Assembly: GCA_022606425.2 (NCBI GenBank)
Contig: JAHDVF020000468.1
Span: 310,001 to 374,000 of the forward strand
Source: Lepidostoma basale
Taxonomy: Eukaryota > Arthropoda > Insecta > Trichoptera > Lepidostomatidae
Length of the DNA stretch: 64,000 nt
Direction of reading: 5' to 3'
How positions within the stretch are numbered: position 1 is the stretch's first letter; every line of letters begins with the position of its first letter. The notes beneath the pieces are model-generated. The model saw nothing but the letters and a program-made list of their open reading frames with translations. It made no database searches and was not told where the DNA came from. Of this stretch, positions 15,545-52,705 are shown piece after piece. Made by a program: the position numbers and the translations under genes.

Positions 15545-15715
15545 AAATAACTTTGTTTTATTTATCACAATTGTATTTTATTTTAAGCGACAGCTGTTTC
15601 GTCAACCTATGTTGACATCATCAGGTGTCGCGTAAAAAAAAGTACATTTGTGATTCATAAAACAAAGTTATTTAATTTAAGAGTTTAAAATGTTAAGGTA
15701 TCATAGCGTTTCTAC
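15545..15715. mobile_element. Foldback element with hammerhead-like motif (Penelope-like?)
   Basis: The left arm (TTAAATTAAATAACTTTGTT) is repeated in inverted form on the right (AACAAAGTTATTTAATTTAA). A minus-strand hammerhead-like core lies between them (15589-15624). The same arm and core recur at 43.6 and 44.2 kb. No coding region is present. Confidence 0.6.
15589..15624 (-). ncRNA. Hammerhead-ribozyme-like motif H1
   Basis: On the minus strand: CTGATGA, a spacer T, stem II GTCAAC/GTTGAC (6 perfect pairs, 4 nt loop), GAAAC, AGCT, then GTC. CUGANGA, GAAA and the NUH cleavage triplet (GUC) are the hammerhead signature; the near-absent stem III is typical of the minimal type known from Penelope-like elements. 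A plausible stem I is TTTTACGC on the 5' side against GCTTAAAA on the 3' side. Confidence 0.6.
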
Positions 15716-15724
15716 TATTTAAAA

Positions 15725-15993
15725 TTATTTAAAACATATTTAATTAATACGAATGAAAACGTTAGTATAGACTAGACTATTTAAAACATATTTAATTAAT
15801 ACGAATGAAAACGTTAGTTTTCTAGATTTTTTCTTATTATTTATGGGATTTCGCCCTTCTAACTTCTAAGGCATTATAAAACATTTAATAATGCCTTAGT
15901 CATTCCCAATACCAAAAAACTTCTAGAAAACTGACATTTTCATTCGTATTAATTGTTTAATATGGAGGTTTACTTCGTTGTTCAAGAAACAAT
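15725..15993. mobile_element. Foldback MITE family M, nearly complete
   Basis: The left arm (AATTAATACGAATGAAAACG, then TTTTCTAGA) is mirrored on the right (TTCTAGAAAACTGAC, CATTTTCATTCGTATTAATT) and ends in TTGTTCAAGAAACAATAAA. The outer left arm is duplicated in tandem over about 50 bp. There is no coding sequence. Confidence 0.7.
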
Positions 15994-16214
15994 AAATAAA
16001 AAATATTTACGAGTATATAAAAACTTCATATGATAGGATAATTTCATATGTAAGGACCTAATATTAATAATAACTTATTTGATGTAATGTTTTATGTGTG
16101 ATAAAGTGTGTATTTTTTTAGTAAATCATTGAATAAATTGTGATCGAAGTTTTATTCTGAAAAGTTTCGATATAGGTATGCATATATTATTAATATTATT
16201 TATTATTATAAGTA

Positions 16215-16492
16215 TATTTTTGAAGAAAGAATGGTAAAAAAATTATATGTTAATGATGTAAATGGAACCAGAAACAGAGGAAGACCGAGGAAAACGTGGC
16301 AGATCAAATAAATCAAATATTGAATGTCGGCCATGTGAGGAGTCAGAGAAATCGACGCGCGTACATGACACGATGTATGTATGTATGTTGAGGAAGCGAG
16401 AGAAATATGTCAGGAAAGAAAAGTGTGGCAGTTCATTCTTTCTGCCTACCCCTTCGGGAAGACGGCGTGATGGTTAGTTAGTTAGTTATATT
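16215..16492 (+). mobile_element. RTE-like LINE 3' end with (GTTA)n tail
   Basis: It contains the basic C-terminal stretch (GTAAATGGAACCAGAAACAG ... AGGAAGACCGAGGAAAACG), the conserved terminal segment CCTTCGGGAAGACGGCGTGA and GTTAGTTAGTTA. It is 5'-truncated and frameshifted. Confidence 0.75.
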
Positions 16493-16569
16493 TTTGTATA
16501 TCATACAAAAAGTTTTTTTGAACCCAATCACTGTATACAATTTGTTTTAATTCTTTCGACCTGTGATAG

Positions 16570-16715
16570 GTAGCTAATCTATCGCCATTTTATTGTCCCA
16601 TTAATTCTTAACCAGGCCAAAGACAGTGTGACAATTATTCTGCCATCGCCGGGACCCGCGACCTTCGGTGTGGCAATCATATTTTTTGCTACTCTGCCAG
16701 ATTATATTTCATCGT
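16570..16715 (-). repeat. tRNA-derived SINE, head fragment
   Basis: The reverse strand matches the head of the SINE at 22312: CCGAAGGTCGCGGGTCCC, GGCGATGGCAG, then TTGTCACACTGTCTTTGG. It is truncated at both ends and diverged. Confidence 0.6.
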
Positions 16716-16719
16716 TGTT

Positions 16720-17814
16720 TCTGGCTATTTTAATTCAATATAATATACAATATATTCATTCACTAAATCATAATTGTTGTTTCTAATGCATTTTAGTTCT
16801 AATATTGTGAATTCTAAACAAGCAGAATAAACAAATTTGTTCATACATTTATTATGTTAAATATTTACGTATTTTCTAGAAAATGTATAAAAAATAAACA
16901 TGTTTCTTGAAATCCCTTCTTTTCAAACCATAAAAGTCTTTATATTTCATGAATACGAATAGTCTCCTTTTAATTAGGCACCAACAAAATTAGTGGGTTA
17001 AGTTTTACACCAAAATACTTTTAACTTAATCAAAATAACAATACCATAATAATCGTATATTATTTTATAGTTCACTACACAAAACTCTTAGATTGAGTGA
17101 CGCTTTTAAGAATTTTAAAACCATTTACGTTTTTTTACAAGGTTTCACCATCACTTTTTTTATTTTTACGCCACACGTAAATCTCAGAACAGCCGCGACC
17201 TGCCCATTATGTAGGTTAAGTATTGGGTAAGGGTGGTAAGAACATCCCCCGTCTCGGGTACTCCCAGTCCAACCTCAACCACATTGGTTACAGCGACGCT
17301 GCTTCAGTACGACGCCAACTACGAAAACCGACGCCTGGATGCGTAGCTCGGACGCCTGAACTCCTGAAAGCTACCTTAATATAACAACAAGAGTACCTTA
17401 AAATTATTTATTACAAAATTATACAACTTTTTACTTAACATTAATAATGTATACTACATTAAAATATTATCTCGACATTTAAGTAGTTTTACTAAACTAA
17501 GAAATAAAAATACAATTAAGATATATTTACTGTCGATTGTATAATTTATTGTATTAGCAATTCGTTAAATTGATTATTATTTCGAAATAACGTTCAACTG
17601 TTTTATTAACGGCAATAAAATTTCAATAATACTCGTTTAAGGTACACTTGTTAAATATTAAAATTTATTGGTTATTAATATGCTTTAATTTTAATATGTT
17701 AACAGTTTACAGATATTTATAATTTGAAGTGAAGTAGTGCAATTAACAAATCTGTGTAGTCTTCAATTTTATAAGTTTCTTGAGGTAGAAGTGATATAAA
17801 GTTTTCGTATAAAA
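16720..17814. other. Upstream region of the tetraspanin gene
   Basis: AT-rich except for a GC-richer unassigned patch at 17160-17380. A possible 3' splice site (TTAATATGTTAACAG, ending near 17706) would allow an untranslated first exon farther upstream. No TATA box or initiator stands out. Confidence 0.35.
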
Positions 17815-17877
17815 ATGGAGTCCTGTGGAATGAGTGTTATTAAATATCTCCTCTTCGTATTCAATGCAATATTTGCT
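17815..17877 (+). CDS. Tetraspanin exon 1
   Basis: It encodes residues 1-21 (start MESCGMSVIKYLLFVFNAIF), the cytoplasmic N-terminus with a cysteine and the first half of TM1. It ends at a consensus donor GTAAGT. This ATG is the only one that gives the canonical short N-terminus. Confidence 0.9.
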
Positions 17878-20800
17878 GTAAGTACATATAACATATTTTG
17901 CATTATAACTCTGAATCTATTATATAGTCATATGTAAATTCTCATCCGAAAGATCTAAGATAAAATAATTTTACTTTTTTTTTTAAATATTAACTATTTA
18001 TGAAAACGAAACCTTCGTTATAAATTACAAATAACATAAATGACTTTGTGTTGTAAATTCTTTTTACTTTTTTGTAACGAAATAAATTTGGTCGTATAAT
18101 ATAATCTATTCATTATACCATTAACTTTTAAAACTTAAAATTCAACAGGTTTCGCATTTAACGCACAGATGCGGGTTAATACAAATATATATTAATTATC
18201 TTAAAAGATTTTATTTTCTTTCATCCACTGTTAGACTTTATCAGTATCTCATCATCATTACTTTTTAGTTATCAGCTGTCTTTCATCCACTGCTAAACAA
18301 AGGCGTTTCTCATAGCATGCCCGAGCATCCTATCCATCGCCACTCTCATCCATCCACGTCCAGCAATTCTTCCAAAGGCTTTCACTACCTTGATAATATT
18401 TTATGTTACTCAACCGTGTCAAAATTATCATAAAGAGTTAAATATGGATTATTTGCAAAATTTATTATCTTTGTCAAACATTATTATTAATTAGAATGAC
18501 TTATTATAGCATGATATTAAGGATAATTATTATAATCATTTGGTAATATTCTAAAAATATGTTTTAATTTAATCAACAGATCCTGGGCGTTCTGATCATC
18601 GCCGCGGCTTCTTATGACATAAGTTTAGTAAAGGAGTACAACAGCATGGGAGATGCGAATGGGATTGAAACGGATATTCTTCTCATTGTCATCGGAATCC
18701 TTATCTTGATCATAGCGGTCTTCGGATGCTTTGGCGCAATCAAGGAGAGTCCGAAGCTTCTTTACTTGGTAAGAATATTAATAAGAATATTCAAAATACG
18801 GCGATATTTGTAAATATTTTGTCTATCAAGACTCGAGATTTAAAAAAAAGCCTTTTTATGCATGCACCCAATTTATTTTAAAGTTATGCAATTTTTCGAA
18901 TTGCTTATGTTTTTGTTCATTTTGCCCATATCGAAGAATGAAGCTTTTGGAAGTGAGGAAGCTTATAGAAGTTTAACAAAACTTTTGATAGAAGATTACC
19001 CACTATATATAATTTTAGTTGAAGATCCCCATTATTTACAATATAGATTAGAGAATTATAATAGTTTTGAATTTAACATTGTAAACAAATTATTTAAAAA
19101 AAAATATTATATATAAATCACAAGAGAAAAAAAAATATCTAATTTTATTTATAATATAATTTAAATTAATTTTTTTTTTGTTTTTATCCTCTGAAATTAT
19201 CTAGAACTCTCCTCAAGCCGTCTTATAAGGCATTTCTTTAAAATATTATGTTAGCTCTATGTTATTGCAATATTTTCTTCTGGATAGTAGTTTTACCCAA
19301 TGGTAGTTTGATAGTTAAACCATAAAAATATACATTATTTTCATTGATCAGGAAATAGTGTATTTCATTAATTACAGAAAGAACCTTAAAAACCTGTTTA
19401 TCTCTTACTACGATCAATTTGACTTATACCATTAAATATTTTTTAATCTTTTTAATTCACTAATTTAAATATAATTAACATTCCGTGATTGTGATTGATT
19501 ACAAAGTGCTATTCGTATGTATATATTTTTTAATATATAAAATTTTAAAATGTCTAACCGTAAAGTGAGTGCATCAAATGAAATTTATAAAGAGTACAAA
19601 ACGTATTGCTTAGAAAATATATAAACGTTTAATGTTGAATAATACCTGAACATAAATTATTACTTTTGAATATGTTTGTTATGTAAATTTCTTTACGTTA
19701 CAAATGCTTTGCTTGTGTAATAAAAATAAAGAACTGAAATACAAACCGTTATTCGCACCCCATCGGTTGACCATATCGAATATCCCACTCCAGATTTACG
19801 TTGAAATATTTTGTTTCTCGACCAATCCCACGGCCATAATGAATGTTATATTTCGAGGCCCTTTATCACAATCACGGCCGCGGGGCTGTGACATATCACG
19901 CGAGCTGGATGTTTATCTCGAAAATATTGCGGTGGTGGTCACATTGCTGAACTGGCGCGTTTCTGACATAAAACTAAAATATTTAAGTGCGCTGACCGTT
20001 CGCAATTTGGTAATGATTGCGAATAGCCCTCATTGTGAATAAATTTTGGGTTTGTGACTTATAAAATACACAAAGAAAAACAAATGAGAGCTTAAACTTT
20101 ATTCAACTGTAAATATGGTTCTCAAAATTAACAAGGCTAAGACTGTCGGCTTTCGATTGTCAACGAATGACTACAAGGCAATGTTATCTTCCATGGTGTC
20201 CCCCTCGTGACTACAGTTAGCTTCTGTTACATTCGTAATATGAGAGGGGGCTTCGCAATATTTCATTGTGCATGGCGTTACAATATAATTTCTGAAAAGC
20301 TCAGATGCAATTTTCAGCAGTAGCGTTATAAGCTTGCTACTGTATGCAAGCTAGACTTGGAAATTTACAACGGACGTAATTAGAAAACTTCAGGTGTTTA
20401 TATCAAGTGTATACGCTATGTATCTGAGATGTTCTGCCCCAAAACAGTGTCTAACGCTGTTCTCTGAGTCATCGCAGACGCATGGCCAATCAGTCGTTAG
20501 AAACAAATAGCTATAGATCTGTCACACCCTAAAACAGAATTTTGCCTGATTCTTAGAGGGTGCACTGGACTGGTCCCCTGGCGGCGAATAGATGAAGCGA
20601 GGCATACCAAGAGTCGCTTGAGGAAGAACTTTGCAAGACTATTCAATTTGGGGTTGTGACAGGACATGATAAGAGGAAGTAGGTGTTAAAATTGCAGAAT
20701 TTCACAACAATTAAAATGCCGCTTACTTCGCTTGTATGAATTTATTTATTATATTTTGACTTGACTTAAATGTAGTTTATCATCAAATTCGGTAAGAAAT

Positions 20801-23800
20801 TAAGAATAAATAATAACTAATTTCCTTGAAATTGTAAATTGTATAAATAGCACTAAATACACACAAAAATATGAGGATGATTCAGTGATTTTCATATTTT
20901 ATTTAGATAAATATATAAAATTTAAGAGAAATGGATCGACATTCGTAAAATTAAATGTTGACATACTTACTTGTGGTAGTTGGTAAACTAAGACATTAAA
21001 AACATCAATCTACTGTACACTATTCTCTAAAGTAAACTCTTTCTATTACCTTAATTAGTCTATTATTAGTCTTCGTAATTTTAAGTGATTAGTCATAATA
21101 TTTTATCTATATATAAATAGTCTTTCTTAGGTAGACGATACCTGATACCCGAAGATGGAGATCATCTCCGAAACATTGTCGTGTTTTAACATTTTTATTG
21201 TTATTGTTAGATATTTAAACAATTAAGGTGAAATATACACGGTGTTGTTTTTCATACTCCAAAGTTTTTACAATGGAATTCCACAGTGTTAACGCCTTAA
21301 CTTTCAATCAAATACACGTTCATTTATTTTAAGTTTCCTTTCTAAAAATGAAATCATTATCCCACAATTCTAACGACTTGTTTCATCCACTTTAAGAAAA
21401 TTAATGTTTTATCGCATATTAGTATCGATTATACTATTTTAAGCGTTCTAGAAAATGCTTTTCAACTAAATAATATAGAGTTTTACCTAAGTAATTACGC
21501 AAGCCACAACTAACCGCCATGTGTAAGCGAGTATTCCAAGAAATTTATAAGTTCCAAACAACACATAATAAAATATTACATATAATTATTTGAAATGTCC
21601 ATTGGAATAAACTATATATTTTCTAGCTACATCTTTCAAAAAAATAAATGTCAGACGTGGTGGTCGTAAGAAGTACGGAATGGGGAATGTTGTATTACAT
21701 AAAGCGATCGCTTTACCCAACCAATGACAGGTCAAAAGTCCTGTAAGCGCCTCGACCACCATATTCTGTTCCCAGAAAACAATTAACATCTTCGTTTCTA
21801 TTGAAATACAATAAATCATTAAAAATGATTAACCCGCAATGGGTTAAATCCAGTATTTGTCTACAAGTATTTGTATACATTCAAAATGTTATATATTTAA
21901 AGACTGGACATTACAAAAGTGTATAAAAAGTCAAAAATGAGTTTTTGATGCCAATTGGTCTTAAACATAAATGCCAATAACTGTGCAAAAGTGCGTATTG
22001 ATTGAATAATATAGTGTAGTTCAAACGTCACCCTAAATGATGCCACCCGTGCTACATGATATATTTTGAAACATAAAACGATGACAAGAAAATAGTTTTT
22101 TTTTGTAAATGAATTGTAACAATATAGTATCCAATATTTTATATTAAGCAAAAACAGATCAAATGAATGTAGAAGAACAGCCATAATAGATGAACCTCTG
22201 TAAATCAGATGATCCAAGTCCGAGTCTGAGGATGTTACAATGTTATATAATCAAAGCCTTCTGTATGATCCTCGAGTCAAAACCCATATAACCTTTGTCG
22301 ACCTCCAATCATGACGACCTTCGTGGTCGAGTGGTGAGGGCCTTGACTGCCACTCCAAAGGTCCCAGGTTCGATCCCTGGCGATGGCAGCGTGATTGTCA
22401 CACTGTCTTTGGTCTGGTGTAGAATTCACGTGACTGGCTCCTGATCCAGGGGACATGGGTTCAAGCCTGGACAACCACCAGATTCCTTCTTCATAATAAT
22501 GAGCTATTTTCTGCTCATATTGAAGATTGTAAAATAAAATTCTAATATCATTGATGTAAATCTTTGATATTAGTCTTTAAAAAAAAAAAAAATAGATTAG
22601 TTACCTCTCACATGTCACGAGAATCAATATGATAGTTATACTCTTTACATCGATTTGGTTCGCGCTGTAATGATGTAAAGAGTGATTCAACAAAATAATA
22701 ATAATATACGGTGTTAGATTGCTTATTAGTTTTCTTACAGTAGATAGTAAAATCTAATATATTGCTTTAAGTAATATCACATCATTTCAAGATAAGTATG
22801 ACGTAAATCGAATACTTGAATTTGAAATAATATTCTTATCCATTTAAACACACGTTATCTTCTTTTTTCTTAGTTCGCCGGTTGCCTCATCCTCATCATC
22901 ATCGTGGAGCTGTCAGTAGGTATTGCCGCGGCTGTTTTAAGACCTCAGATGGAGACATCAGTCAAGAAACATCTCAGGGAATCCTTCATTAAGAACAAGG
23001 CAGATTCCGGACACAAGATCTTCTGGGATAAACTGCAGAAAAATGTACGTAAATATAATTTTTTTTTTATCTACTGTGCTTGTATAAATTCGAAGCCTCT
23101 AAAAACTCCTATACAAACATATTAAGCATAAATACTATTGTGCTACCGTTTTCTGGAAATGTAGTGAAACTCACTCACTGAAATAAGTTCACTTTTTAAA
23201 TATTTTTTTTACTACATTCTTTAGATGATAAAGGATTAGGGCTTCAATAAAATTTCGTACAGAAACTCTAATTTCAATTATTGATTCGGCTTTCACTATA
23301 TACTTCTGGTCCCAACCCTCATGTATTGAAACGAGCAGAACTGGCGGAAGAAGGATGAGAGCAGAATAAATGTGGTGGAGATGAGGTCCCTAAGACGTAT
23401 GTGTGGTAAAAGGACGTACTTGTAAGACAGAATTTCAAATGCTAATATAATAGAGGAATGTAGAGCGGAAGAAGGTATTATTATGAACAAAATTATGAAA
23501 AGATCGCTTCGTTGGTTCAGACATATGGAGCGCATGTATGGAGAAAGAATGCTTAAGATAGTATACTTTAACGATGTAAATGGAATACGGAGTCGAGGTA
23601 GACCGAAGAAATCATGGCATGACCAAATTAATCAAATTTTAAAGATTGGTCATGTTAGAAGTCTGAAGAATCGACGTGCGTGTATGTTTCGTTGTATGAA
23701 TGTGGAGGAAACTAGAGAGGTGTGTCAGGATAGAGTTGTAGGCGGTCCATTCTCTTTTCCTACCCCTGCGGCGAAACGGCAAGAAGGTTTGATTGCTGTT

Positions 23801-33179: not shown

Positions 33180-33770
33180 CTGTTTAAAATGAAAATGCTG
33201 TTATTGTATCACAATTTTTTTTTGCACCACCATGTATTTCTGATGTGTAAGTGGACAACTCTGTTTAAATTATTAAGATTTTTTGGAACAAATGCACATA
33301 AAGGTTATAAAAATCACGAAAATTAATTTTAACTGTTGTCAAAACTAAAAAACACACAAACGAAAAAAACATTGTAACACCTGATCATTGGCGGTACTCC
33401 CAAAGAAGTCCGGAAGCCCGACTTGCGAAATAAATTTTGAATCAAAACCCCCAAATCTAAGTAATCATGCCCCCGCATAAACCAACAACCCACCAAATCA
33501 CCTTCCAACAATGTTCCCATTAGACGTAAGAGGAATAGCCACAAGAGCTGAACCTCTGTAAATCAGAAGAGGTTTTGATTCAAAATTCTTAACGCAAGTC
33601 GGGCTTCTGGGCTTCTATGGGAGTACCGCCACTGCACCTGATGATGCCAACATCGGTCGCGAAAAATAATTTAAAAAAATAAAAATGTGATACCATAACA
33701 GCGTTTTAAATTTTAACAGTTAAAAATGTTGAAGTATCACAGTGATTCGGCCAAAACAATGAACTAAAAT
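33180..33770. mobile_element. Penelope-like foldback element interrupted by a hAT MITE
   Basis: The outer arms are inverted copies: AATATTAACTGTTTAAAATG on the left, and CGTTTTAAATTTTAACAGTT plus GTATCACAGTGATTCGGCC on the right. The right part holds a decayed hammerhead-like core beginning at 33638. The 33386-33634 element is inserted within it. Confidence 0.6.
33386..33634. mobile_element. hAT-type MITE with 8 bp target duplication
   Basis: Ends CATTGGCGGTACTCCC and the mirror of CAGTGGCGGTACTCCC, with terminal inverted repeats extending about 60 bp. The flanking 8 bp duplication CACCTGAT is perfect (33378-33385 and 33635-33642). It is 249 bp and non-coding. Confidence 0.88.
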
Positions 33771-35994: not shown

Positions 35995-36066
35995 TGCGAT
36001 GGCCGGGAATCGAACCCGGATCAACTGCTTGGAAGGCAACTATGCTGACCATTACACCACCATCGC
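35995..36066 (-). tRNA. tRNA-Gly (anticodon TCC)
   Basis: On the minus strand, 72 nt: acceptor GCGATGG paired with CCATCGC, D-arm with AATGGTCAGC, anticodon stem TTGC/GCAG with loop CTTCCAA (anticodon TCC), and T-arm CCGGGTTCGATTCCCGG with a good B box. A run of T residues, the Pol III terminator, follows on the transcribed strand (RC of AAAAAAA at 35986-35992). There is no intron. It differs from the 43.2 kb copy by one base in the acceptor arm, restoring a Watson-Crick pair there. Confidence 0.95.
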
Positions 36067-36271: not shown

Positions 36272-36446
36272 GGGCACCACTGATATTTTAGTAGACCAGG
36301 TAGGTAGGTACTGTAATAATTCTGAATTCTGGGCACCACTGATATTTTAGTAGACCAGGTAGGTAGGTACTGTAATAATTCTGAATTCTGGGCACCACTG
36401 ATATTTTAGTAGACCAGGTAGGTAGGTACTGTAATAATTCTGAATT
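36272..36446. repeat. Tandem repeat, three copies of 59 bp
   Basis: Unit starts GGGCACCACTGATATTTTAG and contains AGGTAGGTAGGTACTG. Three near-identical head-to-tail copies. The minus-strand open frame through it is a by-product. Confidence 0.95.
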
Positions 36447-37810: not shown

Positions 37811-37876
37811 ATTATTCTTTTTTATACACTTTGTATATACAACACTTACATTAAAAAATAAAATTATATACTCGTA

Positions 37877-37907
37877 GACAATTTTCGGACAAACAGTTAT
37901 TCTTCAG
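37877..37907 (-). ncRNA. Hammerhead-like motif H3 (decayed)
   Basis: On the minus strand: CTGAAGA, a degenerate stem II (ATAAC ... GTCC), GAAAA, TT, GTC. It is the mirror partner of the intact motif at 38122; stem II changes probably make it inactive. Confidence 0.4.
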
Positions 37908-38121
37908 TAAAGATACATTTTTTTTTAATATTATAAAATTGTTTACATGATCTGACAGGTGTTATAAAGATTTCCCCACAAGATTTCACCCCAATAAGAA
38001 CTTTAAATTATTATTTTAAATTTTATATTTGTTATAACAAAAGCATAATCGTTCCAAAATCTTTATAACATCTGTCAGATCATGTAAACAATTTTATATT
38101 ATTTATAAAAATGTATCTTTA

Positions 38122-38152
38122 CTGAAGAAGGACTGTTTGTCCGAAACATGTC
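38122..38152 (+). ncRNA. Hammerhead-ribozyme-like motif H4
   Basis: CTGAAGA, spacer A, stem II GGAC/GTCC with a 5 nt loop TGTTT, GAAAC, AT, GTC. Core residues match the hammerhead consensus. Stem I is weak and unresolved. Confidence 0.6.
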
Positions 38153-38307
38153 TATATAAGTTTATTTGTTAATATAAGTGTTGTATATACAAAGTGTAAT
38201 AGAAATAAACCACCATAACAACACAAAGTATGACGTATATAGAAGAAAATGTGATATATTTTTTGATTTCATGTTTTCTTAATTTATAATTCTAATTTTG
38301 CTTATGC

Positions 38308-38500: not shown

Positions 38501-39425
38501 TATTTATATATGATTTTAAGTTATTTAAATCAACGATTAATTTTTACGTAATAATAAAAGTACGAGTATATGGAAAAAATATAAATAACAAAAAACAAGT
38601 CAAATGGAATAACTTTCGTAAGTGTCAATGCTTTTCTAAAATATGAGTTAAAACAACTTTGTTCTGTTCAGGGAATTACTACATAAATATAGGTACGCAT
38701 AAAAATAATTTAAATCATAAGGTAGAGTGTACTGTCAAATTTGCGTGTAATTCTGATTTCGTGGGTAAGTTTTTTTAGCTAGATAGACTTTACTATTCCG
38801 ATTCCTGCATACATGTAATAATTTTACTTTTGAATAATTTACTTTTACCCGCAACCCATAGCTGAGGGTGGATTTTAACTTTGGATCCAGCATTAGATAC
38901 ATTTTTAATAATAATTTCTAGCCACTATTAACAATTCTCGAATTAAAATAATCTTAATTGGAAGTGGGCTTCTAGATCATCGAATCGTGTGTCTTGTTTG
39001 CAAATCTTATGTACGTAAGATAATGATTATTCCATCTATGAGACAAGCATGATCATTAGATTAACCGTCCTACCTTTGGGTTATTTTCCGAGAAACGTGA
39101 AAAAAAACAGGTTTTTTATTAATGAAATTGAATTATATATTAATTTTATTTTTTTAAATTACGAAACGACAAATGCTCGGCCGCACACTTCGCCTGCCCC
39201 TTGTAAAACTATCATACTTGTGAAGACTTGTACTCGTGTGCTGTTGGCACACGTGCGTATCTCTAAAGGTTTGTACATTTTAGGTAAATTACTTTTTCTC
39301 AAGCGCGTACGTTATACGGGATAGCGCAGAATGGTACAGTCACAGTGAACGTATCACGTACGTACAAATACGTAGGGTGGTTTAAAGTTTATTTTATATG
39401 CGTCATCTCTTTGGGTTGTGATTCA
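38501..39425. other. Unassigned intergenic sequence
   Basis: AT-rich with a more balanced stretch at 39170-39380. A 91-codon + frame (39049-39324) lacks recognisable features and is not called. Confidence 0.4.
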
Positions 39426-39429
39426 CATT

Positions 39430-39645
39430 TGAATATTTTTTTTAAAACATTTGTATTTTCATAACACTTTATTGCACTTTTCACAAACTTGTTTTGGGAC
39501 ACCGAAGCCTTTCTGTGTCGAAGAAGAAGAAATCTTAACATTTGGTTAAAATTGTAAAATTTGGTACATATTTCCACACTGAAGAAGGACATCTGTGTTC
39601 CGAAACATGTTTGTGACAAGTGTAAAGAAGTTTTGTAAATACAAT
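39430..39645. mobile_element. Foldback element with hammerhead-like motif (Penelope-like)
   Basis: The left arm (ACATTTGTATTTTCATAACA, CTTTTCACAAACTTGTTTTG) mirrors the right arm (CATGTTTGTGACAAGTGTAA, ACAATGTTTTCAAAAGG). H5 is in the right arm; its inverted counterpart on the left is degraded. A one-arm relation appears at 42.72-42.79 kb. Confidence 0.6.
39579..39611 (+). ncRNA. Hammerhead-ribozyme-like motif H5
   Basis: CTGAAGA, spacer A, stem II GGACA against TGTTCC (5 pairs with one bulged T), GAAAC, AT, GTT. GUU is a permitted NUH triplet. Slightly decayed. Confidence 0.5.
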
Positions 39646-39649
39646 GTTT

Positions 39650-40185
39650 TCAAAAGGTTTTTGAAAATTGAATCTACAGGACAAATTGATGGCGAACAAA
39701 ATACTGTTCTCAATTTTCCTTATCTTTAAGATTGTTAAAGTATCTAGGCGACATTGTTTTCATATTTCAATCTCACTTTATGTTCAAAATGCTTCACAGT
39801 TCTCTATAATAATCCACTAATGTGTAGCTATTGTTTGCTTCTATTATTGATCTGGATTAGGTCGTTCAACCTGGGTTCATGTGTTACTTTTGATCCAAAA
39901 TAGAGGTCCAACTTGGTTGTAATCACAATGTACGTCACTGCAGAGACCGGTGGTCTGCAGAGGTCGTGGTATGGGGGGTATAACGTGCTTGATAAGAAAA
40001 TATCGTCGTGACAAATTTAATGGAACGATTATTAATGATATAGTTTATTCACGTTGGGTACCTACTCCATATATTGTTGGCGTACTAAGAAAACCACCTT
40101 GTTTAGAAATCAAGTCAATTAATTAATGATAATGACTTAAAGTTTAAGCCATTAGCTTAAATTAATTAACTTCTTTTCTAAACAT
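39650..40185. other. Unassigned intergenic sequence
   Basis: No gene or repeat recognised. Confidence 0.4.
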
Positions 40186-42780: not shown

Positions 42781-42784
42781 GACT

Positions 42785-43212: not shown

Positions 43213-43284
43213 GCGATGGTGGTGTAATGGTCAGCATAGTTGCCTTCCAAGCAGTTGATCCGGGTTCGATTCCCGGCCGTCGCA
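43213..43284 (+). tRNA. tRNA-Gly (anticodon TCC)
   Basis: 72 nt cloverleaf: acceptor GCGATGG with CCGTCGC (one T-G wobble), D-arm AATGGTCAGC, loop CTTCCAA giving anticodon TCC, T-arm CCGGGTTCGATTCCCGG, discriminator A. An oligo-T terminator follows within 10 nt. It is almost identical to the minus-strand gene at 35995-36066. Confidence 0.95.
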
Positions 43285-43664
43285 CACTTATTTTTTTTAA
43301 TTGAAAGATCATTTTAGTTTAATTACATAATGTATTTACTCCTTAAAAGTTTGACAATCGATGCAAAATGTTATATTTATAAACGAAGTAAAACAATTTT
43401 ATTTTTGGTTCTGGTTTGTGCTATTCAAAACAATTAAACTCTCAATTTTTTTTTAAATAAAACTATAGGAATAAAACAATAACATGTTCCATTTTTGATG
43501 GTTAAGGCATTAAACACTGTGGATTTCCATTTTTAATTTTGATTAAGAATTTTACACAATGCATAATCCACGTTATTTGGGATCGCAATAAAGTGAATTA
43601 TACATTCAAACTGTTAAATTAATTAACTTAGTTTTATGTATCACAATTGTATTTTATTTTACGC

Positions 43665-43700
43665 GACAGCTGTTTCGTCAACCTATGTTGACATCATCAG
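43665..43700 (-). ncRNA. Hammerhead-ribozyme-like motif H6
   Basis: Minus strand: CTGATGA, T, stem II GTCAAC/GTTGAC, GAAAC, AGCT, GTC; identical in core and stem II to H1 at 15.6 kb. The sequence after the cleavage triplet is GCGTAAAA, which pairs perfectly with TTTTACGC found on the 5' side of H1. Confidence 0.6.
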
Positions 43701-44158: not shown

Positions 44159-44194
44159 CTGATGATGTCAACATAGGTTGACGAAACAATTGTG
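44159..44194 (+). ncRNA. Hammerhead-ribozyme-like motif H7
   Basis: CTGATGA, T, stem II GTCAAC/GTTGAC with loop ATAG, GAAAC, AATT, GTG. Core and stem II are perfect, but the triplet ends in G, which is not permitted by NUH, so cleavage is doubtful. Confidence 0.5.
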
Positions 44195-45275: not shown

Positions 45276-45499
45276 ATTACTTTCGTTATAATTTATCATT
45301 TAATAAAGTACGTGTTCTTCTACAAAAATACGTGTTTTGAAAGTAGACTAAAATGTCAGTCTTCTATAATATTTATTACCGTACATATCAGTGACATGCT
45401 TTAACCTGCTGCGAGATAATATAATTTGCCGAGAATCAAACGCGTATCCTTTAAGCCAGAATTAATGGAGCAAAACATTGATGTCTTATATTATAATAA

Positions 45500-46000
45500 T
45501 ATTTTAGATCCAAAGAAAGAAAGACTACCAACCATTGGAAGTTAGACAAACTATCCATTTGGGTGTTCATTTATTTCAACTAATTCGTGATCCAATACAA
45601 AACCTGGGTATTTGAAATAAGTTGAATTTGTTTGTCCCTGACATTTTCTGCGACAACGGCAGCATAGATTATTTAAACCTGCAAACGAATAAATCAAATC
45701 TACCTAAAGTAATGCCTGTAGACAGAAAAATTATCCTGCGAAACCGTGTCGCTTCGGATGTGGACTTTTTTCACAATAGCAAGGCTACCCTCAGAAACCA
45801 TATATCTCGAATAAATGAAATAGCTTTTTTCTTGTGCTTTCTTATTGAATTTTATTTTTCATTTGTATTTTCAAATTAATCTTGCATTAATAATTGTACT
45901 ATTGATGTTTATTATTATTATTATTATTCTGTATTATAAACGAATAAGATTTATATTTGTGTGATGTACAAGATTTTACAATAAAATGTAATTGAATTCT
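45500..46000 (+). pseudogene. Non-LTR reverse transcriptase C-terminus with 3' end
   Basis: A frame at 45622-45790 reads LNLFVPDIFCDNGSIDYLNL and NRVASDVDFFHNS, a decayed version of the 'N..SDIDFF' ending also seen at 30.9-31.2 kb. A (TTA)n run at about 45910 and AATAAA near 45980 mark the element's end. Confidence 0.6.
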
Positions 46001-46143
46001 TATGTTTCATAATTATAAGTATTAATGTTGGTAATTGAAATTTCATGGTAGAGGTTCATTGTAAATAATGAAAATAAAAATAATTAATTAAAAAATTCTT
46101 TATAGTATTTATTTAGTTAAATTTCACTGAGGTTTATGTGTTC

Positions 46144-46220
46144 GACCGGTTTTGTCCATCTTCTTGAGTCCACCATGGTTCATCTCACCAGAAGGTAGCA
46201 GCGAGCTGCCGAAACCGGTC
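46144..46220. mobile_element. Short foldback with opposed hammerhead relics (GAAACCGGTC type)
   Basis: Left, minus strand (46144-46167): CTCAAGA-like core, AAAACCGGTC. Right, plus strand (46189-46220): CAGAAG, stem II GGTAGC/GCTGCC (6 pairs, one G-T), GAAAC, CG, GTC. The core deviates from CUGANGA, so these are probably inactive relics. Confidence 0.45.
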
Positions 46221-46494
46221 AAAGCCGTAAGCCTAAGTGGAATTTAACTAAATATATGCCATCGTAAAAAATGTTTTAATTATTTTATTTTATTTTTATT
46301 ATTCAATTCATTCACTCTCTCTATGATTCGGCGCATGTCTTCGATGGGTGGTCACCCATGATCTGTCTAAAACATTTAATATTCCCAGTCTTCACGGTTA
46401 CGTTTTGTTGTTTGTTATATGTATAATCCAATAACGGGGTTAAATTCATTTTCAAACATTTTACCGGGAAACCAAAATAAAACACTCGTATTTC

Positions 46495-47520
46495 CAAAAA
46501 AGTAACAAGCGTTTATTATCTGTATATAAGAAAAGGTTTACATAATATGAGTGCACTCTATAATATATCTTAACATATATTAAACTAGTAAATGCTTCAA
46601 TAGATCACAAAACTATTAATTTAGCAACTTTTGTGTTCAAAATAATTTGTAATATACGAGTATATGTAAAGGCGGATGAATTTATAGTGTTACAATTATT
46701 TAATAAAAGAAACCCATATCAAAAACCGCACAAATGTATAAATATTAAATATAAACAACATAGATATAAACTATAACAAACTTAAATAATTTTAGTATTT
46801 TATAAACATAAAGCTAAAAAATTACAAACTTTAAGAATTTGATATTTTATTAATCAAAACGCCGTTTTTTCGTTACATGAACTTATTTAACGTCTGAAAA
46901 AGATTTTAACTGTATAAATATTATATAAATAACACGATAAATTTTAACAGTTTATAACTTTCTCCCGATGATAGTAGACGTGAGTGGTAGATAATGAATA
47001 ATCGAAATAAATAAACTCATAAATGTTAACTAAAGCTGTTTTGATATTTATAAATAAAAAAAATCTAATTCTATAGTGTAGCTTTAAATAGCAGTTTTCC
47101 GTATCTAATTTCCATAGAAATAAAAAATAAGAGAACGCACAAACCACGGAAAAAACAGATGTTTCGTTTAATGTTTCTTTTGCTATTTTATTAAATTTAA
47201 TGTAAATATTTAAATAATAATGAGATTAAGTTAACTAATTTGATTCAATGTTTTTGAGATTACCTATTTCATAACTGATAAATAATGTACTTACAAAATA
47301 TAAAATTATGAATGTACAAACATATTTTATAAAGCTAGACCCGACATTTTAACAAAAACACCAGAATGGGAATGTTTTAATATTGTAATAACTCATTTTA
47401 CTATGCTAGAAATACAAATGCACAAGTTTATTTTAAAACAAGTATCGAAGAGGCAGGAGTACACTAGTTGTGAACAAGATGAAGGAAATTTTCAAAGATG
47501 GCGCTGCATTCTCCAACCTG
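46495..47520 (-). CDS. Possible terminal exon and 3' UTR of an unidentified gene
   Basis: On the minus strand a strong acceptor (TTCTTTTTTTATTTTTACAG) ends at 47521. It is followed by a 17-codon frame VGECSAIFENFLHLVHN and TAG; another frame stays open for 27 codons. The next ~970 bp contain no transposon I recognise, unusual here, and end at an AATAAA (RC of 46511-46516). This is what a last exon with a long 3' UTR would look like, but no upstream exon was found and the peptide is too short to identify. Confidence 0.25.
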
Positions 47521-47764
47521 TAAAAATAAAAAAAGAATTAGGAACGATTCAGATTATATTATAAATACACATGACGCGTTCTGAGTAAACTCTTGTAAAA
47601 TTGCTTATTTTTTTCCTATTTAATTAATTAATTCCTATGTAAATATACCCATGAGTGGAAAGATTATAGAATTTATACTTTATTTAAATCATAGATTTGA
47701 AAGCTTATATTTTATAGTATTTTAATATGTTTCTAGATAAATGTTATGTTATGCCTAAGTATTT

Positions 47765-47925
47765 AATCAACCATCACGCTATTTCACCGAATAGGTAGGC
47801 AAAAATGATGGCCACACTGTTCATTCCTGACATTATTCTTTTGATAACTCAACATTAATTTATCAAATCATGAACGCATGTCAATTGTTCCGATTCCTCA
47901 CATGTCCAAAATATTTTTATTTATT
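47765..47925 (-). mobile_element. RTE-like LINE 3' end
   Basis: AACCATCACGCTATTTCACCG, then the reversed C-terminal stretch ending in TTCCTCACATGTCCAAAAT. Old copy. Confidence 0.6.
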
Positions 47926-48355
47926 GACATAACATATTGTTTATTGCTAAAATCACATAAAAGTATTGACACATACTATGGTTTCATTTTATTTACAATC
48001 CAATTATCTATTGTATACGGAGATTATTTTTATTGACCCAATAATAGTAATTACACTAATTAAATGTTCAGAGTTTTTAAATAAAATATTGGTAGAAACT
48101 ATATACGAATAATAAACTTTACAGAATATTACAAAACGAAGACTAATGAAAACCAATCGAAAATCACAATTTTAATTTAAAATATGTATAAAAATGTAAT
48201 AAAGCACTTTGTATTTAACCAATAAGCTTGTCAGCTTTCGGAAACATAAGTTATATTCTCCAAAAACCGGAAAATACCGATCAACCTGAAACGAAAAGAC
48301 TGTGAAGCCTGCGTTCTGCCAGTTGGTATTTATGATCTTGAAACTGTTATATTGT
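47926..48355. other. AT-rich intergenic sequence
   Basis: Nothing recognised. Confidence 0.4.
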
Positions 48356-48360
48356 TCAAA

Positions 48361-48745
48361 CAAAGTGCCGAGAAACTACGAGTGACCCAAAGAGCCATGT
48401 TAAGAATAAGCCTAAGAGACAGAGTCAGAAACGATACGGTGAGAGAAAAACAAAGGTCACTGACATCATCCACCGGTTGGCGACTCTAAAATGGTAATGG
48501 GCAGGTCACGTAGCCAGAAGCTCAGTTGAAAAGTGGACAAGAAGACTGCTGACTTGGAGACCGTGGACGGCAAAGAGGAGTGCAGGGCGACCGCAACTAC
48601 GGTGGAAGGATGATCTGAACAGACACGTCGGAATAACCTGGATGCAATCTGCACAGGACAGAGTGACATGGAAGCGAATGGAGAAGGCATTTGTCCAGAA
48701 GTGGACGGGAATAGGCTAAGGAAGAAGAAGAAGAAGAAATACTCG
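48361..48745 (+). pseudogene. RTE-like reverse transcriptase C-terminus with (GAA)n tail
   Basis: It reads EKLRVTQRAMLRISLRDRVR, then WAGHVARSSVEKWTRRLL, SAGRPQLRWKDDLNRHVG and a Trp-containing end, then GAAGAAGAAGAAGAA. Classic order for this LINE group, with at least one stop. Confidence 0.75.
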
Positions 48746-48769
48746 TACTATATTTGATGCTAAATTGTT

Positions 48770-48870
48770 TTTTATGCACCCAAGCTTTATCAAGACAAAA
48801 TAATAACTATAAACAGTTATTATATCGCCCTGATGAAGCTTGGAAGAAAGCGAAACTACAAAGAAGGCAT
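48770..48870. mobile_element. Short foldback with hammerhead-like motif
   Basis: CCAAGCTTTATCAAG on the left mirrors CTGATGAAGCTTGG on the right, with AATAACT/AGTTATT as an inner pair. Confidence 0.5.
48830..48856 (+). ncRNA. Hammerhead-like motif H8
   Basis: CTGATGA, A, stem II GCTT/AAGC with a 6 nt loop, GAAAC. The bases that follow (TACAAAG) contain no NUH triplet in the expected place, so it is probably a relic. Confidence 0.4.
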
Positions 48871-48879
48871 CAAATAAGT

Positions 48880-50200
48880 GTTTTATGAATTTTAATGTAC
48901 GAGTATATTGTTATACTCGTATATTAAAGCAGAAATAATAGAAAATTAGGTGGCCTTTTTTTCATTTGACATGTTACTTGAACGACGGACAGACCTTGAA
49001 TTTGACATTTTATTTCAAACAGAAAATCTTTGTTAATAGTTTACCTGTCTAAAGAACGCGTAGATTTTGAAGTTTTCAATTTGAACAAAGAAAGTAAAAT
49101 CATTTTGCTTTTTATTCGGAAACCACTTCATAAAAATTCACCGTCAAAGAACTCATATATACCTGAATAGGTAAACATGTGGTAGCTTTTCGCAGAAAGA
49201 AAACTTACCGTGCTACTTCGAATTTGTTTTAACACTTATTAATGTACCATACCTAACCAACAACTTGACTGATTATTTTTTATACAAATACATCTAGTAC
49301 GAAAACACGTTAAAAAAAATTATTTATGTTTTTTTAAATGAAATTAAAATTAATTATATGGAATTATTATAATCGGGTAGTACTTATTAAAGTGTTAACA
49401 AATTGTTTCTCTAGACTTATATTTATATGGTTATAATCACACTTGGTACTTAAAATGTTTGATTTGCGTTTGTTTTTATCAAGATTTTCTCAAAATTTTC
49501 ATATTATTAACAACATAAATATTTTCTTTACTTAAAACAATTTTGATGTGCTGTAGTTGATATATCAAACATGTTTTTTATTATTTGTTCAACTAAGTTT
49601 TTATATTAATTAGGACGCTCGTGAAACCGGTCGGCCATAAAACAAATTGATAATTTAAAATAATCATTTAATTAGATTTCTTTGTATTTTTAGCACGCAG
49701 GGTACTTTTAACTTATAATTAGTTAACATTTTCTTTTTTCAAAAAATATTTCTTCTTCTTCAACATCTTCAACATCTTCAACTTAGACATACTTAAGGAA
49801 CAAGAAAAGACGTCCTATTCATTATATATCATATGGATATGTGGTTCACAATATTTTCAGTTGACATAACAAAATTAAATTTAATAATATGTAATGCTAT
49901 TTGTTGAAACTAATGAAAATACGTTTGAATATATCTGTTTTGTTCTAATTTTATGCTTTCAGTTCCGACCGGTTTCACAACCAGCTCAATGCCACCGTCT
50001 GGTCAATACGTGACTCTCCGAACAGGCTGTCTAACAAGACTACGGCAAGATACTACAATATTAAAAAAGTTACAATAGCAATATAAGCTTTGTGGATGAT
50101 GTGTTGAAATTTATGATTTATTAATCTATGCAATAAATAGTTTATTCTTATCAAATCGTACAAGTATTTTTTATATATATATCATATAATTTGGAGCGAG
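48880..50200. other. AT-rich sequence with a GAAACCGGTC inverted pair
   Basis: Mostly unassigned. 49623-49632 (+) and 49967-49976 (-) are opposed GAAACCGGTC strings, the 3' half of the hammerhead relic family, about 330 bp apart. Intact cores are not visible. Confidence 0.4.
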
Positions 50201-50204
50201 TCTT

Positions 50205-50360
50205 TCTGAAATAAATAATGCAAATGAAAACGTCTATTTTCATATAGTATTTTATATTTAAAATTTGATAATAATTGATAAAGATAATGAAAATGTTTTC
50301 ATTCGTATTTATTATTTAATACAGAGTTTTATACCATTGTTCAAGAAACAATAAATGAGT
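50205..50360. mobile_element. Foldback MITE family M, short copy
   Basis: GCAAATGAAAACGTCTATTT mirrors GAAAATGTTTTCATTCGTA; the right end is CATTGTTCAAGAAACAATAA. Confidence 0.65.
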
Positions 50361-50589
50361 CTTACTGATAATGAGAACAAAAAAAAATTGATACACAATA
50401 TTTTTGTTTTCATTATTTAAAATGAAATTCTACCAAGAAATTTCAATTAAAAATATTAATTATTTGAGTCTTACTGCTCATGAATCTGGGAATTTTCATG
50501 TTTTTTTTTTTAATTTTCCACATTTAGCAGTTTATTTAAACTGTATACTATTTGTTTTTATAGCTATTATCTTAATTCTCATGACATGT

Positions 50590-50730
50590 AATAGGAAGAT
50601 AATCCATCGCCATTTTATTGAATTCTAGACTAGACCAAACAGAGTGTGATAATCACACTGCCATCGCCGAGAAAATACCTTCGGTATGGCAGTCAGAGCT
50701 CTTGCCACTCTGCCACGAAGGTCATAAAAT
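50590..50730 (-). repeat. tRNA-derived SINE, head fragment
   Basis: The reverse strand begins ACCTTCGTGGCAGAGTGGC, which is A-box-like, and continues with GGCGATGGCAGTGTGATTAT, as in the SINE head at 22312. Confidence 0.6.
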
Positions 50731-51149
50731 TTTTAACAAATCATAAAATGATGGCATTATATCAATGCCATATTTAAAATGTGTTAAGAGCGATTCATAA
50801 CTGTAGGTAAATTAATTTACCACTTATATTGATCAAGTAATGATAAATTGTACGTGATCCCACTACGCCCACCCCACTAGCTACACGTGTACGTAACTTT
50901 TGAGTAGCATGGACTGATGACTTCGCTCTGCGTGTTGGTCATGTATACAAAATTCTACACGAGTTGCATTATTTTTTTAGCTTAGTCCATTACCGCACAG
51001 GGTGCAGGCAATATTCATCCAGAATAAATAAATTTAAAAAATACTAAAATTTAAAAAATACATCAGCATACCGTTACTAACAAAGCATCGGACACGAACA
51101 TACCCAAAATCCCGAGAAATATAGATCTATCAATCAAATCTTACTGGCT
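50731..51149. other. Unassigned intergenic sequence
   Basis: No gene or repeat recognised. Confidence 0.4.
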
Positions 51150-51505
51150 AATTAACCATCACGACTCAATATTTGATTTATTTGATCGTGCCACGTTTTC
51201 GTCGGTCTTCCTCATTTTCTAGTTCCATTTATATCGTCAACAGATACTATTTTTTACCATTCTTTCTTCATTCATTCTTTCCGTGTGTCCAAGATGGTTT
51301 TTACCTCTGTTCCTTTATGAGTTGTGTGTTCCTGTGTTGTGTGTGTGTTGTATGAATGTTCCTTTCACTATTTTGTTCAGAACACTTTCATTCGCACCGA
51401 ATTCACTTCTTATATTTTCATTTGACACTAACATACACAGTTTTTCCTCACATTCGTCTAGGAGATCTCATTTCTACTGCATTTAATCTACTTTCATTCT
51501 TCTAC
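51150..51505 (-). mobile_element. RTE-like LINE C-terminal and 3' region
   Basis: The minus strand matches the region from the MRSLRR-type segment (TACTGCATTTAATCTACTTT side) to the 3' end (AACCATCACGACTCAATATT), with a deletion of the terminal segment. Confidence 0.65.
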
Positions 51506-51840
51506 CAATCATCTACGCACACATATTAAATACGTTAGAATGATTAACACAAACAATTTAATGCGTTATTAAACTTAATTTTTACTAAAACAAAGTTTTA
51601 TAATTACTTATAACTGGCATGTTTTTTCCTATTTGTCCGTTCAATGTGAAATGCCAATATTTATATTTGTAATAAGTCACAATGAAGCGCGAGGAATATA
51701 AATCGTGAAAAAAACTCCTCTGAAACCACCATTTTTTATTTTTATTATGGTTTCTGTCCATTTCTCGTGCTGAAGCTCGTGCGTCGCCTACAACGAAGAA
51801 ATATATATTTTTTTGTACATAATTATCACAACGGTCAGTA

Positions 51841-52235
51841 ATCTTCTTCTTCTTCAATTAGATTAGGTGATCTGTTATCTCGGATTTTGCCTTCTTTTGC
51901 TATGCAGAAGACTAGGTATCTCTTCATCTTTTGGATGGCCTGCCCAAATGAATGTTGTCTGCGGGTATTGCATGCAGCAGTATACGAGATTCTATGAGTG
52001 TCCATACGGTTCACATGATCTTGCCAGAATCGTCTCCTTATTCTGCTCGATCTCACAATGTCCTCGTTATTACAGGTTTATTCTCTGAGGGTTATTCCTG
52101 CAATGGCGTTTTCATCTCTATGGTTCTTAGAAGATTTTTAGTTCGAGTTGTGCATGCTCTTATCTCCACATATAGGGCATTATTGGTCAATAATATCCAA
52201 ATAAAACCCAGGATGTGAAGTAGGCTTCTTAAAAT
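51841..52235 (-). mobile_element. RTE-like LINE 3' end, (GAA)n-tail family
   Basis: The minus strand reads RRFWQDHVNRMDTHRI, ending after a (GAA)n run (CTTCTTCTTCTTC on the plus strand). Upstream is the reverse-transcriptase end with indels. Confidence 0.6.
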
Positions 52236-52448
52236 AGGATTCAAATCTTCTGTAATCCAGAACAAATGGAGAATGTTTTTCTTTTAAAAATATTTTGTTT
52301 AGTTTGTTTCTTGAGCAATGATGTAAAACTGCATATAATCAATTAATAAAAATAAAAACGTCTGTTGTCTATTGATTTTATTATATATTTTTGCATCAGC
52401 AAGACGAAAAAGTCATTATCCTAAAATGTTATAAAATAAATTCATTGA

Positions 52449-52705
52449 CAGTTAAGACGTTAACACTGTGGAAGTCCATTGTAAACTGAAATTGGAAACA
52501 CAGCGCTGTATTTCTTCCACTTAAGTTAATTCAATATCTTTATAAAACAATCATAAAAATATTAAAACAAAATTATAAATAACAATCATATACTTACATC
52601 TGAAGATGGAGGTCACCTCCGAAACTGTCGTGTTTTAATATTATTATTATTATATAAAGATATTGAATAAACTAAAGAGGAAAATATACAGTCTTGTGTT
52701 TAAAA
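52449..52705 (+). mobile_element. Penelope-like foldback element with hammerhead
   Basis: It starts with the terminal motif ACGTTAACACTGTGGAAGTC. Inner arms TTCAATATCTTTATAAAAC and ATATAAAGATATTGAA are inverted copies. It carries H9, the best-conserved motif. Confidence 0.6.
52600..52629 (+). ncRNA. Hammerhead-ribozyme-like motif H9
   Basis: CTGAAGA, T, stem II GGAGG/CCTCC with loop TCA, GAAAC, T, GTC: every core position agrees with the hammerhead consensus. ACAT upstream can pair with GTGT downstream as stem I. It covaries with H2. Confidence 0.65.

What the first reader, a model, noticed from the sequence alone, without database searches (positions are those of the whole stretch)
15589..52629. 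A scattered set of hammerhead-ribozyme-like motifs in non-coding foldback elements
Seen: nine places with a CUGANGA-like core, a stem II hairpin and GAAA(C/A), mostly followed within 1-4 nt by GUC or GUU (H1 15.6 kb, H2 21.2, H3 37.9, H4 38.1, H5 39.6, H6 43.7, H7 44.2, H8 48.8, H9 52.6). The variable spacer takes the forms AGCT, ATT, AT and T before GUC, as expected for a vestigial stem III. Known: minimal hammerheads occur in Penelope-like elements and retrozymes. Inferred: the copies belong to at least four related families, and some may still self-cleave.
Basis: partly seen in the sequence, partly recalled or inferred. Interest (0 to 1): 0.88.

Follow-up and report, generated by a model that had tools for sequence, protein, structure and literature searches.

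The report
Penelope retroelement hammerhead ribozyme remnants
These look like leftover ends of an old kind of jumping gene (Penelope-like retroelements) in an insect-like genome, each carrying a tiny motif of the kind that lets RNA cut itself; this is an already known kind of thing, here with one unusual extra letter shared in the motif's core.

Summary
The motifs are real. A structural scan finds 6 in the window (200 shuffles: mean 0.1, maximum 1); read by hand, 8 of the 9 places hold, 3 of them damaged, and H8 lacks a cleavage site. Rfam models find none. A model of 7 copies finds left-out H2 well (E 9e-7), H3, H6, H7 and H1 only weakly. Genome-wide (769 Mb) a strict pattern matches 15,161 times, its reversed control 0. 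At L079 two copies stand head-to-head, each about 110 nt behind a GIY-YIG endonuclease frame; endonuclease remnants lie at five further places. Best reading: 5'-truncated Penelope-like elements with minimal type I hammerheads, the foldbacks being inverted element ends. Shared, and not in the finding: one extra nucleotide between A9 and stem II (13 of 13 structural hits; 15,161 against 147 pattern matches) and a self-complementary stem III segment (ACAUGU in 24 of 27 copies), which would suit cutting as dimers. Cleavage is untested; families A and B (H1, H2, H6, H7, H9) are tied to Penelope by likeness only; stem I is poor in many copies.

The parts
15589..15624 (-). H1: minimal hammerhead, family A; core CUGAUGA + extra U, stem II GUCAAC/GUUGAC, stem III segment ACAGCUGU, site GUC
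   Evidence: left-out hit of model R1, 13.0 bits, E 0.33, weak
15524..15694 (.). foldback (73-nt arms, 86% complementary) with H1 at its apex; read as head-to-head inverted Penelope ends
   Evidence: the repeat finder I12, BLAST self-match, fold z-score -11.3
21149..21180 (+). H2: family B, core damaged (CCGAAGA); stem II GGAGA/UCUCC differs from H9 by a compensated pair
   Evidence: left-out hit of R1, 31.8 bits, E 9e-7
33638..33664 (+). H10 (not in the finding): decayed family A copy without cleavage site, core split by another insertion at about 33389-33634
   Evidence: BLAST to H7 region and sequence; not found by R1
37877..37907 (-). H3: family C, stem II broken
   Evidence: R1 15.1 bits, E 0.078, left out
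38122..38152 (+). H4: family C, core, 4-bp stem II, ACAUGU, GUC; stem I interrupted
   Evidence: R1 51 bits (training copy)
37825..38198 (.). head-to-head inverted repeat holding H3 and H4, 79% identical arms
39579..39611 (+). H5: family D, the type found behind a Penelope-type endonuclease frame at L079
   Evidence: R1 48.3 bits (training copy)
39401..39694 (.). foldback around H5, 69% identical arms
43665..43700 (-). H6: family A, intact core, stem II and GUC; stem I poor
   Evidence: R1 14.1 bits, E 0.16, left out
44159..44191 (+). H7: family A, core and stem II intact, GUC site lost; head-to-head partner of H6
   Evidence: R1 13.9 bits, E 0.18, left out
48830..48855 (+). H8: core-like motif with stem II but no cleavage site; doubtful
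   Evidence: not found by R1
52600..52629 (+). H9: family B, core, 5-bp stem II, GUC; monomer hammerhead fold close to the minimum-energy fold (-7.9 against -9.7 kcal/mol)
   Evidence: R1 43.7 bits (training copy)
52482..52715 (.). foldback with H9 between its arms (80 nt, 78%)
   Evidence: the repeat finder I13, fold z-score -5.9

Best explanation
The motifs are minimal type I hammerhead ribozymes of Penelope-like retroelements (PLEs). In a PLE the ribozyme lies in the pseudo-LTR, behind the endonuclease frame (shown here for one family) and near the start of the next unit (from the literature), so that transcripts of tandem units carry one ribozyme per unit. Because stem III is only 1-2 bp, the ribozyme probably acts when two copies pair through their self-complementary stem III segment (ACAUGU, ACAGCUGU) and cut each other (inferred, not shown). 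What is seen in the window are 5'-truncated insertions; the foldbacks arise when a second end is joined head-to-head during insertion, as described for other PLEs (inferred). Most or all window copies are decayed passengers.
For: Pattern with the extra nucleotide: 7,680 + 7,481 matches in the own genome, reversed-pattern control 0 + 0. L079/L080 (one place): two head-to-head copies, each with a GIY-YIG frame (Pfam PF01541 on the longer one, E 8e-5) ending about 110 nt before the hammerhead, same strand. Of 11 relatives of that frame four were scanned: P0010 has RVT_1 above cut-off, P0005 RVT_1 below cut-off, P0007 GIY-YIG, P0014 nothing, though a source names P0014 a GIY-YIG protein of Lygus hesperus. 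Remnants of the same endonuclease at L058, L060, L077/L078, L084 and L086; none in 20 unselected 10-kb stretches and none in the window. Neighbours within 3 kb among the 100 places listed: 10 head-to-head, 0 tail-to-tail, 7 same strand. Stems covary: 85.7% of cells paired, 17 cells changed on both sides against 6.4 in shuffles (0 of 500 reach it); 7 of 9 pairs changed on both sides against 4.7 (35 of 500 reach it). 27 of 30 distinct genome copies have GUH within 7 nt; 24 of those 27 have ACAUGU. Published PLE anatomy fits: minimal hammerheads lacking helix III in pseudo-LTRs (PMC7761336, passages); inverted pseudo-LTRs, head-to-head, palindromes at the junction (PMC3846280, passages).
Against: No PLE coding motif in the window (regular expressions; tblastn). 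No reverse transcriptase was seen next to a hammerhead in this genome; at L079 only the endonuclease part is present. Endonuclease remnants were found beside family C, D and two related types, not beside a copy of family A or B. At L060 and L086 the remnant is on the opposite strand from the motif. With a laxer pattern on L058-L087, overlapping loci merged, neighbours are 6 head-to-head, 2 tail-to-tail (L066, L074) and 2 same strand (counted), so tail-to-tail pairs do occur. Stem I is weak: of the 27 genome copies with a GUH site, 8 have 4 or more contiguous stem I pairs and 12 have none or one. The left-out hits of R1 on H1, H3, H6 and H7 have E 0.08-0.33, and an unrelated place (53861-53906 +) has 11.2 bits, E 1.1. 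Rfam hammerhead models do not match in the window and RF00163 gives 1 hit in the whole genome. Dimer folds could be drawn but were not the minimum-energy fold for any of the 5 copies tried. Target-site duplications were looked for by eye only and not shown. The genome pattern fixes core and outer stem II letters, so it cannot measure how conserved they are.
Confidence: 0.92

Rival explanations
1. Non-autonomous foldback DNA transposons (MITE-like) whose loop carries a hairpin that resembles a hammerhead by chance or by capture.
For: The window copies are non-coding and mostly sit in long inverted repeats.
Against: Core, stem II with compensated changes and GUH site recur in families whose flanks align poorly or not; a GIY-YIG endonuclease frame lies directly upstream of one family and remnants of it near five more places; 17 of the 30 loci L058-L087 (some overlap) show a single motif in about 3 kb, though a decayed partner could be missed.
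Confidence: 0.04
2. Non-LTR retrozymes: tandem units of 170-400 bp that make self-cleaved circular RNAs.
For: Retrozymes carry type I hammerheads and retrozyme-like repeats are reported in insects (PMC7229834, passages); one place has four same-strand motifs 373-954 bp apart (C3:19741-21785).
Against: No tandem array at any motif in the window; stem III is 1-2 bp, whereas most invertebrate type I motifs tested formed a stable helix III (PMC7761336, passages); the endonuclease linkage points to PLEs.
Confidence: 0.03
3. The motifs are kept as RNA structures for another use, for example binding of the PLE protein at the pseudo-LTR, and cleavage is weak or incidental. (This may hold together with the best explanation.)
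For: In the anole PLE the ribozyme cut only with protein present, and mutants that cannot cut still served for insertion in vitro (PMC11167929, section 3 read). Stem I is weak in many copies here.
Against: The GUH site is kept in 27 of 30 copies and the self-complementary stem III segment in 24 of 27, which a binding hairpin would not obviously need.
Confidence: 0.25

Closest known systems
Minimal type I hammerheads of Penelope-like elements (Cervera and De la Pena 2014; Lunse, Weinberg and Breaker 2017: titles seen in reference lists; contents recalled)
   Same: core, stem II, vanishing stem III, thousands of dispersed copies, position in the pseudo-LTR (PMC7761336, passages); dimer cleavage is in the title of the 2017 paper
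   Different: an extra nucleotide before stem II in practically all copies here; whether those papers report it could not be read
Hammerhead of Poseidon PAc, anole PLE (PMC11167929, section 3 read)
   Same: C3 and G8 lie before the start codon and the frame begins at stem II, which implies CUGANG-AUG, that is the same extra nucleotide (my inference); cut site 26 bp after the start codon there, 24 nt after the equivalent ATG in H9 (counted by eye)
   Different: different host and family; families C and D here have AAG where the ATG would be
Chrysanthemum chlorotic mottle viroid plus hammerhead
   Same: has an extra A in its plus hammerhead (PMC3705267, figure legend passage); its place between A9 and stem II is recalled
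   Different: a viroid ribozyme with full stems (recalled), not a mobile-element family
Penelope elements of the rotifer Adineta vaga (PMC3846280, passages)
   Same: inverted pseudo-LTRs, head-to-head, 5' truncation
   Different: the word hammerhead does not occur in that text

Membership tests
Hammerhead ribozyme, type I | core CUGANGA and GAAA with stem II between | tested here: met
   6 strict hits in the window, 7 in 200 kb of unselected DNA, not all of them convincing
Hammerhead ribozyme, type I | stems I and II supported by compensatory changes | tested here: met
   7 sequences: 7 of 9 pairs change on both sides (35 of 500 shuffles reach that), 0 of 500 reach the covariation score; stem I nevertheless weak in many genome copies
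Hammerhead ribozyme, type I | NUH cleavage site after stem III | tested here: met
   27 of 30 genome copies; in the window H1, H4, H5, H6, H9 and damaged H2, H3; not H7 (GUC), H8, H10
Hammerhead ribozyme, type I | stable stem III in the monomer | tested here: not met
   1-2 bp with loops of 1-5 nt; only a dimer could extend it. Fits the minimal PLE subtype
Hammerhead ribozyme, type I | no insertion in the core | tested here: not met
   one extra nucleotide in 13 of 13 structural hits; 15,161 against 147 by pattern
Hammerhead ribozyme, type I | match to Rfam hammerhead models | tested here: not met
   none in the window; 1 in the genome
Hammerhead ribozyme, type I | self-cleavage | not testable with these tools
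   needs the bench
Penelope-like element | GIY-YIG endonuclease frame joined to the motif | tested here: met
   L079, remnants at L058, L060, L077, L084, L086; not in the window and not for families A and B
Penelope-like element | reverse transcriptase in the same frame | tested here: inconclusive
   not seen next to a motif here; relatives of the L079 frame carry RVT_1 (P0010 above, P0005 below cut-off)
Penelope-like element | inverted or tandem pseudo-LTR copies, 5' truncation | tested here: met
   10 head-to-head, 0 tail-to-tail, 7 same-strand neighbours; 6, 2 and 2 with a laxer pattern; foldbacks in the window
Penelope-like element | pseudo-LTR ends within the first codons of the frame, short target duplications | tested here: inconclusive
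   outer ends of H2, H6 and the left arm of H9 share ATG-GA(A/C)-(T/A)TC-CACAGTGTT by eye; no clear target duplication by eye
Non-LTR retrozyme | tandem repeats of 170-400 bp with the motif | tested here: not met
   no tandem array at any window motif

The most novel reading that the evidence does not exclude
The PLE hammerhead is a distinct core variant: CUGANGA plus one obligatory unpaired nucleotide before stem II, together with a self-complementary stem III segment whose sequence differs between families (ACAUGU, ACAGCUGU, ACAAUUGU). The ribozyme would then cut only as a dimer, and the segment would act as a family-specific pairing key that chooses sister RNAs; the extra nucleotide would come from the overlap of the core with the element's start codon (CUGANG-AUG).
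Probability: 0.3. Interest if true: 0.6.

Novelty: new member of a known kind. Interest (0 to 1): 0.4.

Why it matters
[quoted passage not shown] A single genome with over 15,000 pattern matches in several families, nearly all with the same extra core nucleotide and, in the copies looked at, mostly a self-pairing stem III segment, gives a natural data set for testing whether they cut as dimers. It also shows that Rfam's Hammerhead_1 model overlooks this abundant class (1 hit in the genome).

Tried and rejected
Rfam models, whole window and two 91-base stretches (H9 and H5): no hammerhead. The first scanner allowed no extra nucleotide and found nothing; corrected ones followed. Viral contigs: two patterns gave 0; a looser one gave 46 loci. 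The structural scan lists 3 of these 46 (L022, L044, L048), and only in L044 is it the pattern hit itself; I judged none of them a convincing hammerhead by eye and dropped them. Species genome contigs: 10 loci. Six are bins whose isolate codes I recall as termite-gut samples, so probably host DNA; 4 of these 6 (L004, L006, L008, L010) have 4-5 contiguous stem I pairs, L001 has 0 and L002 has 1, while the 4 others (L003, L005, L007, L009) have 0; strict stem II was found in L001, L006, L008 and L010 only. That pattern itself fixed the extra nucleotide, so these loci say nothing about it. L001 went into the model although its stem I is poor. MITE and retrozyme readings: see rivals. The reading of the outer ends as a frame start (M[ED][FI]HSV) is too short to test. 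A tandem-array or tRNA origin was not supported. None of these changed my odds.
Full report
The observation. Each of the nine places was read. Eight carry CUGANGA or a one-letter relative of it, a stem II hairpin (broken in H3), GAAA and, except H7, GUC or GUU soon after; H8 lacks a cleavage site. A structural scan (core, 0-2 extra nucleotides, stem II of at least 4 bp, loop of 3-9, GAAA) gives 6 hits in the window: 15624 -, 38122 +, 43700 -, 44159 +, 48830 + and 52600 +, against a mean of 0.1 and a maximum of 1 in 200 shuffles. H2, H3 and H5 fall outside that scan because of a core change, a broken stem II and a 3-bp outer stem II. The model R1, which holds H4, H5 and H9, recovers H2 at E 9e-7 and H3, H6, H7, H1 at E 0.08-0.33; it misses H8 and H10 and lists one unrelated place at E 1.1.

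Structure. In an alignment of four outside copies (L001, L006, L008, L010) and H4, H5, H9, 85.7% of cells pair; 17 cells change on both sides against 6.4 in shuffles (0 of 500 reach it); 7 of 9 pairs change on both sides against 4.7 (35 of 500 reach it); sliding the partner by 1-3 columns lowers the covariation score from 0.73 to 0.21 or less. The four outside copies came from a pattern that fixed the two outer stem II pairs, which do not vary; the informative pairs lie outside it. H2 and H9, 77% alike, differ in stem II by a compensated pair (A-U to G-C). Stem I is the weak part: of 27 genome copies with a GUH site, 8 have 4 or more contiguous pairs and 12 have none or one. Rfam's models find nothing in the window and RF00163 finds one place in the genome.

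The extra nucleotide. All 6 window hits and all 7 hits in 20 x 10 kb of unselected DNA from contig C2 have exactly one extra nucleotide between A9 and stem II, though 0-2 and 0-3 were allowed. H8 and two or three doubtful places are among these 13. Genome-wide the pattern with an extra A or T matches 15,161 times, the one without 147 times, with 1 in its reversed control; by eye about three quarters of the places listed read GAGGG, so they may be copies whose extra letter is G. In the anole PLE the text says that C3 and G8 precede the start codon and that the frame begins at stem II (PMC11167929, section 3 read); that implies the same insertion, as part of an AUG (my inference). H9, H2 and family A have ATG at that place; families C and D have AAG.

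What it belongs to. At C1:1,342,510-1,343,926 (L079/L080) two motifs of the H5 type point away from each other, and each follows an open frame with a GIY-YIG signature by about 110 nt; Pfam PF01541 matches the longer frame at E 8e-5. Eleven relatives were found; of the four scanned, P0010 has RVT_1 above its cut-off, P0005 RVT_1 below it, P0007 GIY-YIG and P0014 nothing. With these proteins and the L079 frame as queries, endonuclease remnants were found at L058, L060, L077/L078, L084 and L086 besides L079/L080, out of 31 partly overlapping loci L057-L087; none in L088-L107 and none in the window. On the same strand and upstream of a motif they lie at L058, L077, L079 and L084; at L060 and L086 they are on the other strand, as the partner of a head-to-head pair would be. 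No such remnant was found beside a copy of families A or B, so their place among PLEs rests on shared motif, extra nucleotide and architecture.

Foldbacks. The window's inverted repeats around H1, H3/H4, H5, H6/H7 and H9 put the 5' sides of the motifs inward. Among 100 listed genome places, neighbours within 3 kb are 10 head-to-head, 0 tail-to-tail and 7 same strand. A laxer pattern on loci L058-L087, overlapping loci merged, gives 6, 2 and 2 (counted), so head-to-head prevails but is not the only arrangement. Head-to-head inverted pseudo-LTRs with palindromes at the junction are described for rotifer Penelope (PMC3846280, passages). The foldback of H1 pairs GCGACA with UGUCGC and so covers the cleavage site.

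How it may work. Stem III is 1-2 bp. In 24 of 27 genome copies with a GUH site the segment from A15.1 to U16.1 is ACAUGU; in H1 and H6 it is ACAGCUGU and in H7 ACAAUUGU, all self-complementary; in H9 (ACUGU) and H2 (ACAUUGU) it is so but for one mismatch, and H3 is not. Two RNAs could pair there and cut each other, as reported for newt and viroid motifs (PMC6155905, passages). Such a fold can be drawn with 4-8 intermolecular pairs for the five copies tried, but it is not the minimum-energy fold in any. That PLE hammerheads cut as dimers is in the title of a paper that I could not read; the segment's fit to this mode is my inference.

Verdict. A known kind of thing, abundant here, with two shared features that may deserve a bench test. 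Searches bearing on prior mention: foldback hammerheads (4 papers), hammerheads with inverted repeats and insects (8), an extra core nucleotide (10), palindromes with PLE hammerheads (3). These were seen as listings only, apart from passages of PMC6431247, PMC3705267, PMC6155905 and PMC7229834. The two papers most likely to report these features are not held, so I make no claim that they are unreported.

Noticed in passing
window 54128-55231 -: A mariner-type transposase frame (Transposase_1, E 6e-19), open over 367 codons.
   Followed up: no
window 60671-61159 -: Exon of a copper/zinc superoxide dismutase; the only named relative found is from Papilio xuthus, so the host is probably an insect.
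   Followed up: partly
window 35995-36066 -, 43213-43285 +, 22317-22388 +: Three tRNA-Gly genes; the first two are inverted copies of each other (95%).
   Followed up: no
window 33389-33634: A palindromic element (TGGCGGTACTCCCA ends) inserted inside decayed hammerhead H10; Rfam calls it MIR5020 below its cut-off.
   Followed up: partly
window 56087-56313: A 9-bp tandem repeat, about 24 copies.
   Followed up: no
window 36272-36446: A 59-bp unit repeated three times without a mismatch.
   Followed up: no
L057 (G000:C844:789780-789896 -): The only place in the genome that passes Rfam's Hammerhead_1 cut-off (38.7 bits); its sequence, read on the other strand by eye, also seems to have an extra T before stem II and a self-complementary ACACGTGT.
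   Followed up: partly
L001, L002, L004, L006, L008, L010: Bacterial genome bins with pieces that look like host insect DNA carrying this hammerhead, mostly at contig ends: likely contamination of the bins.
   Followed up: partly
G000:C3:19741-21785: Four same-strand motifs 373, 717 and 954 bp apart, a possible tandem PLE or retrozyme array.
   Followed up: no
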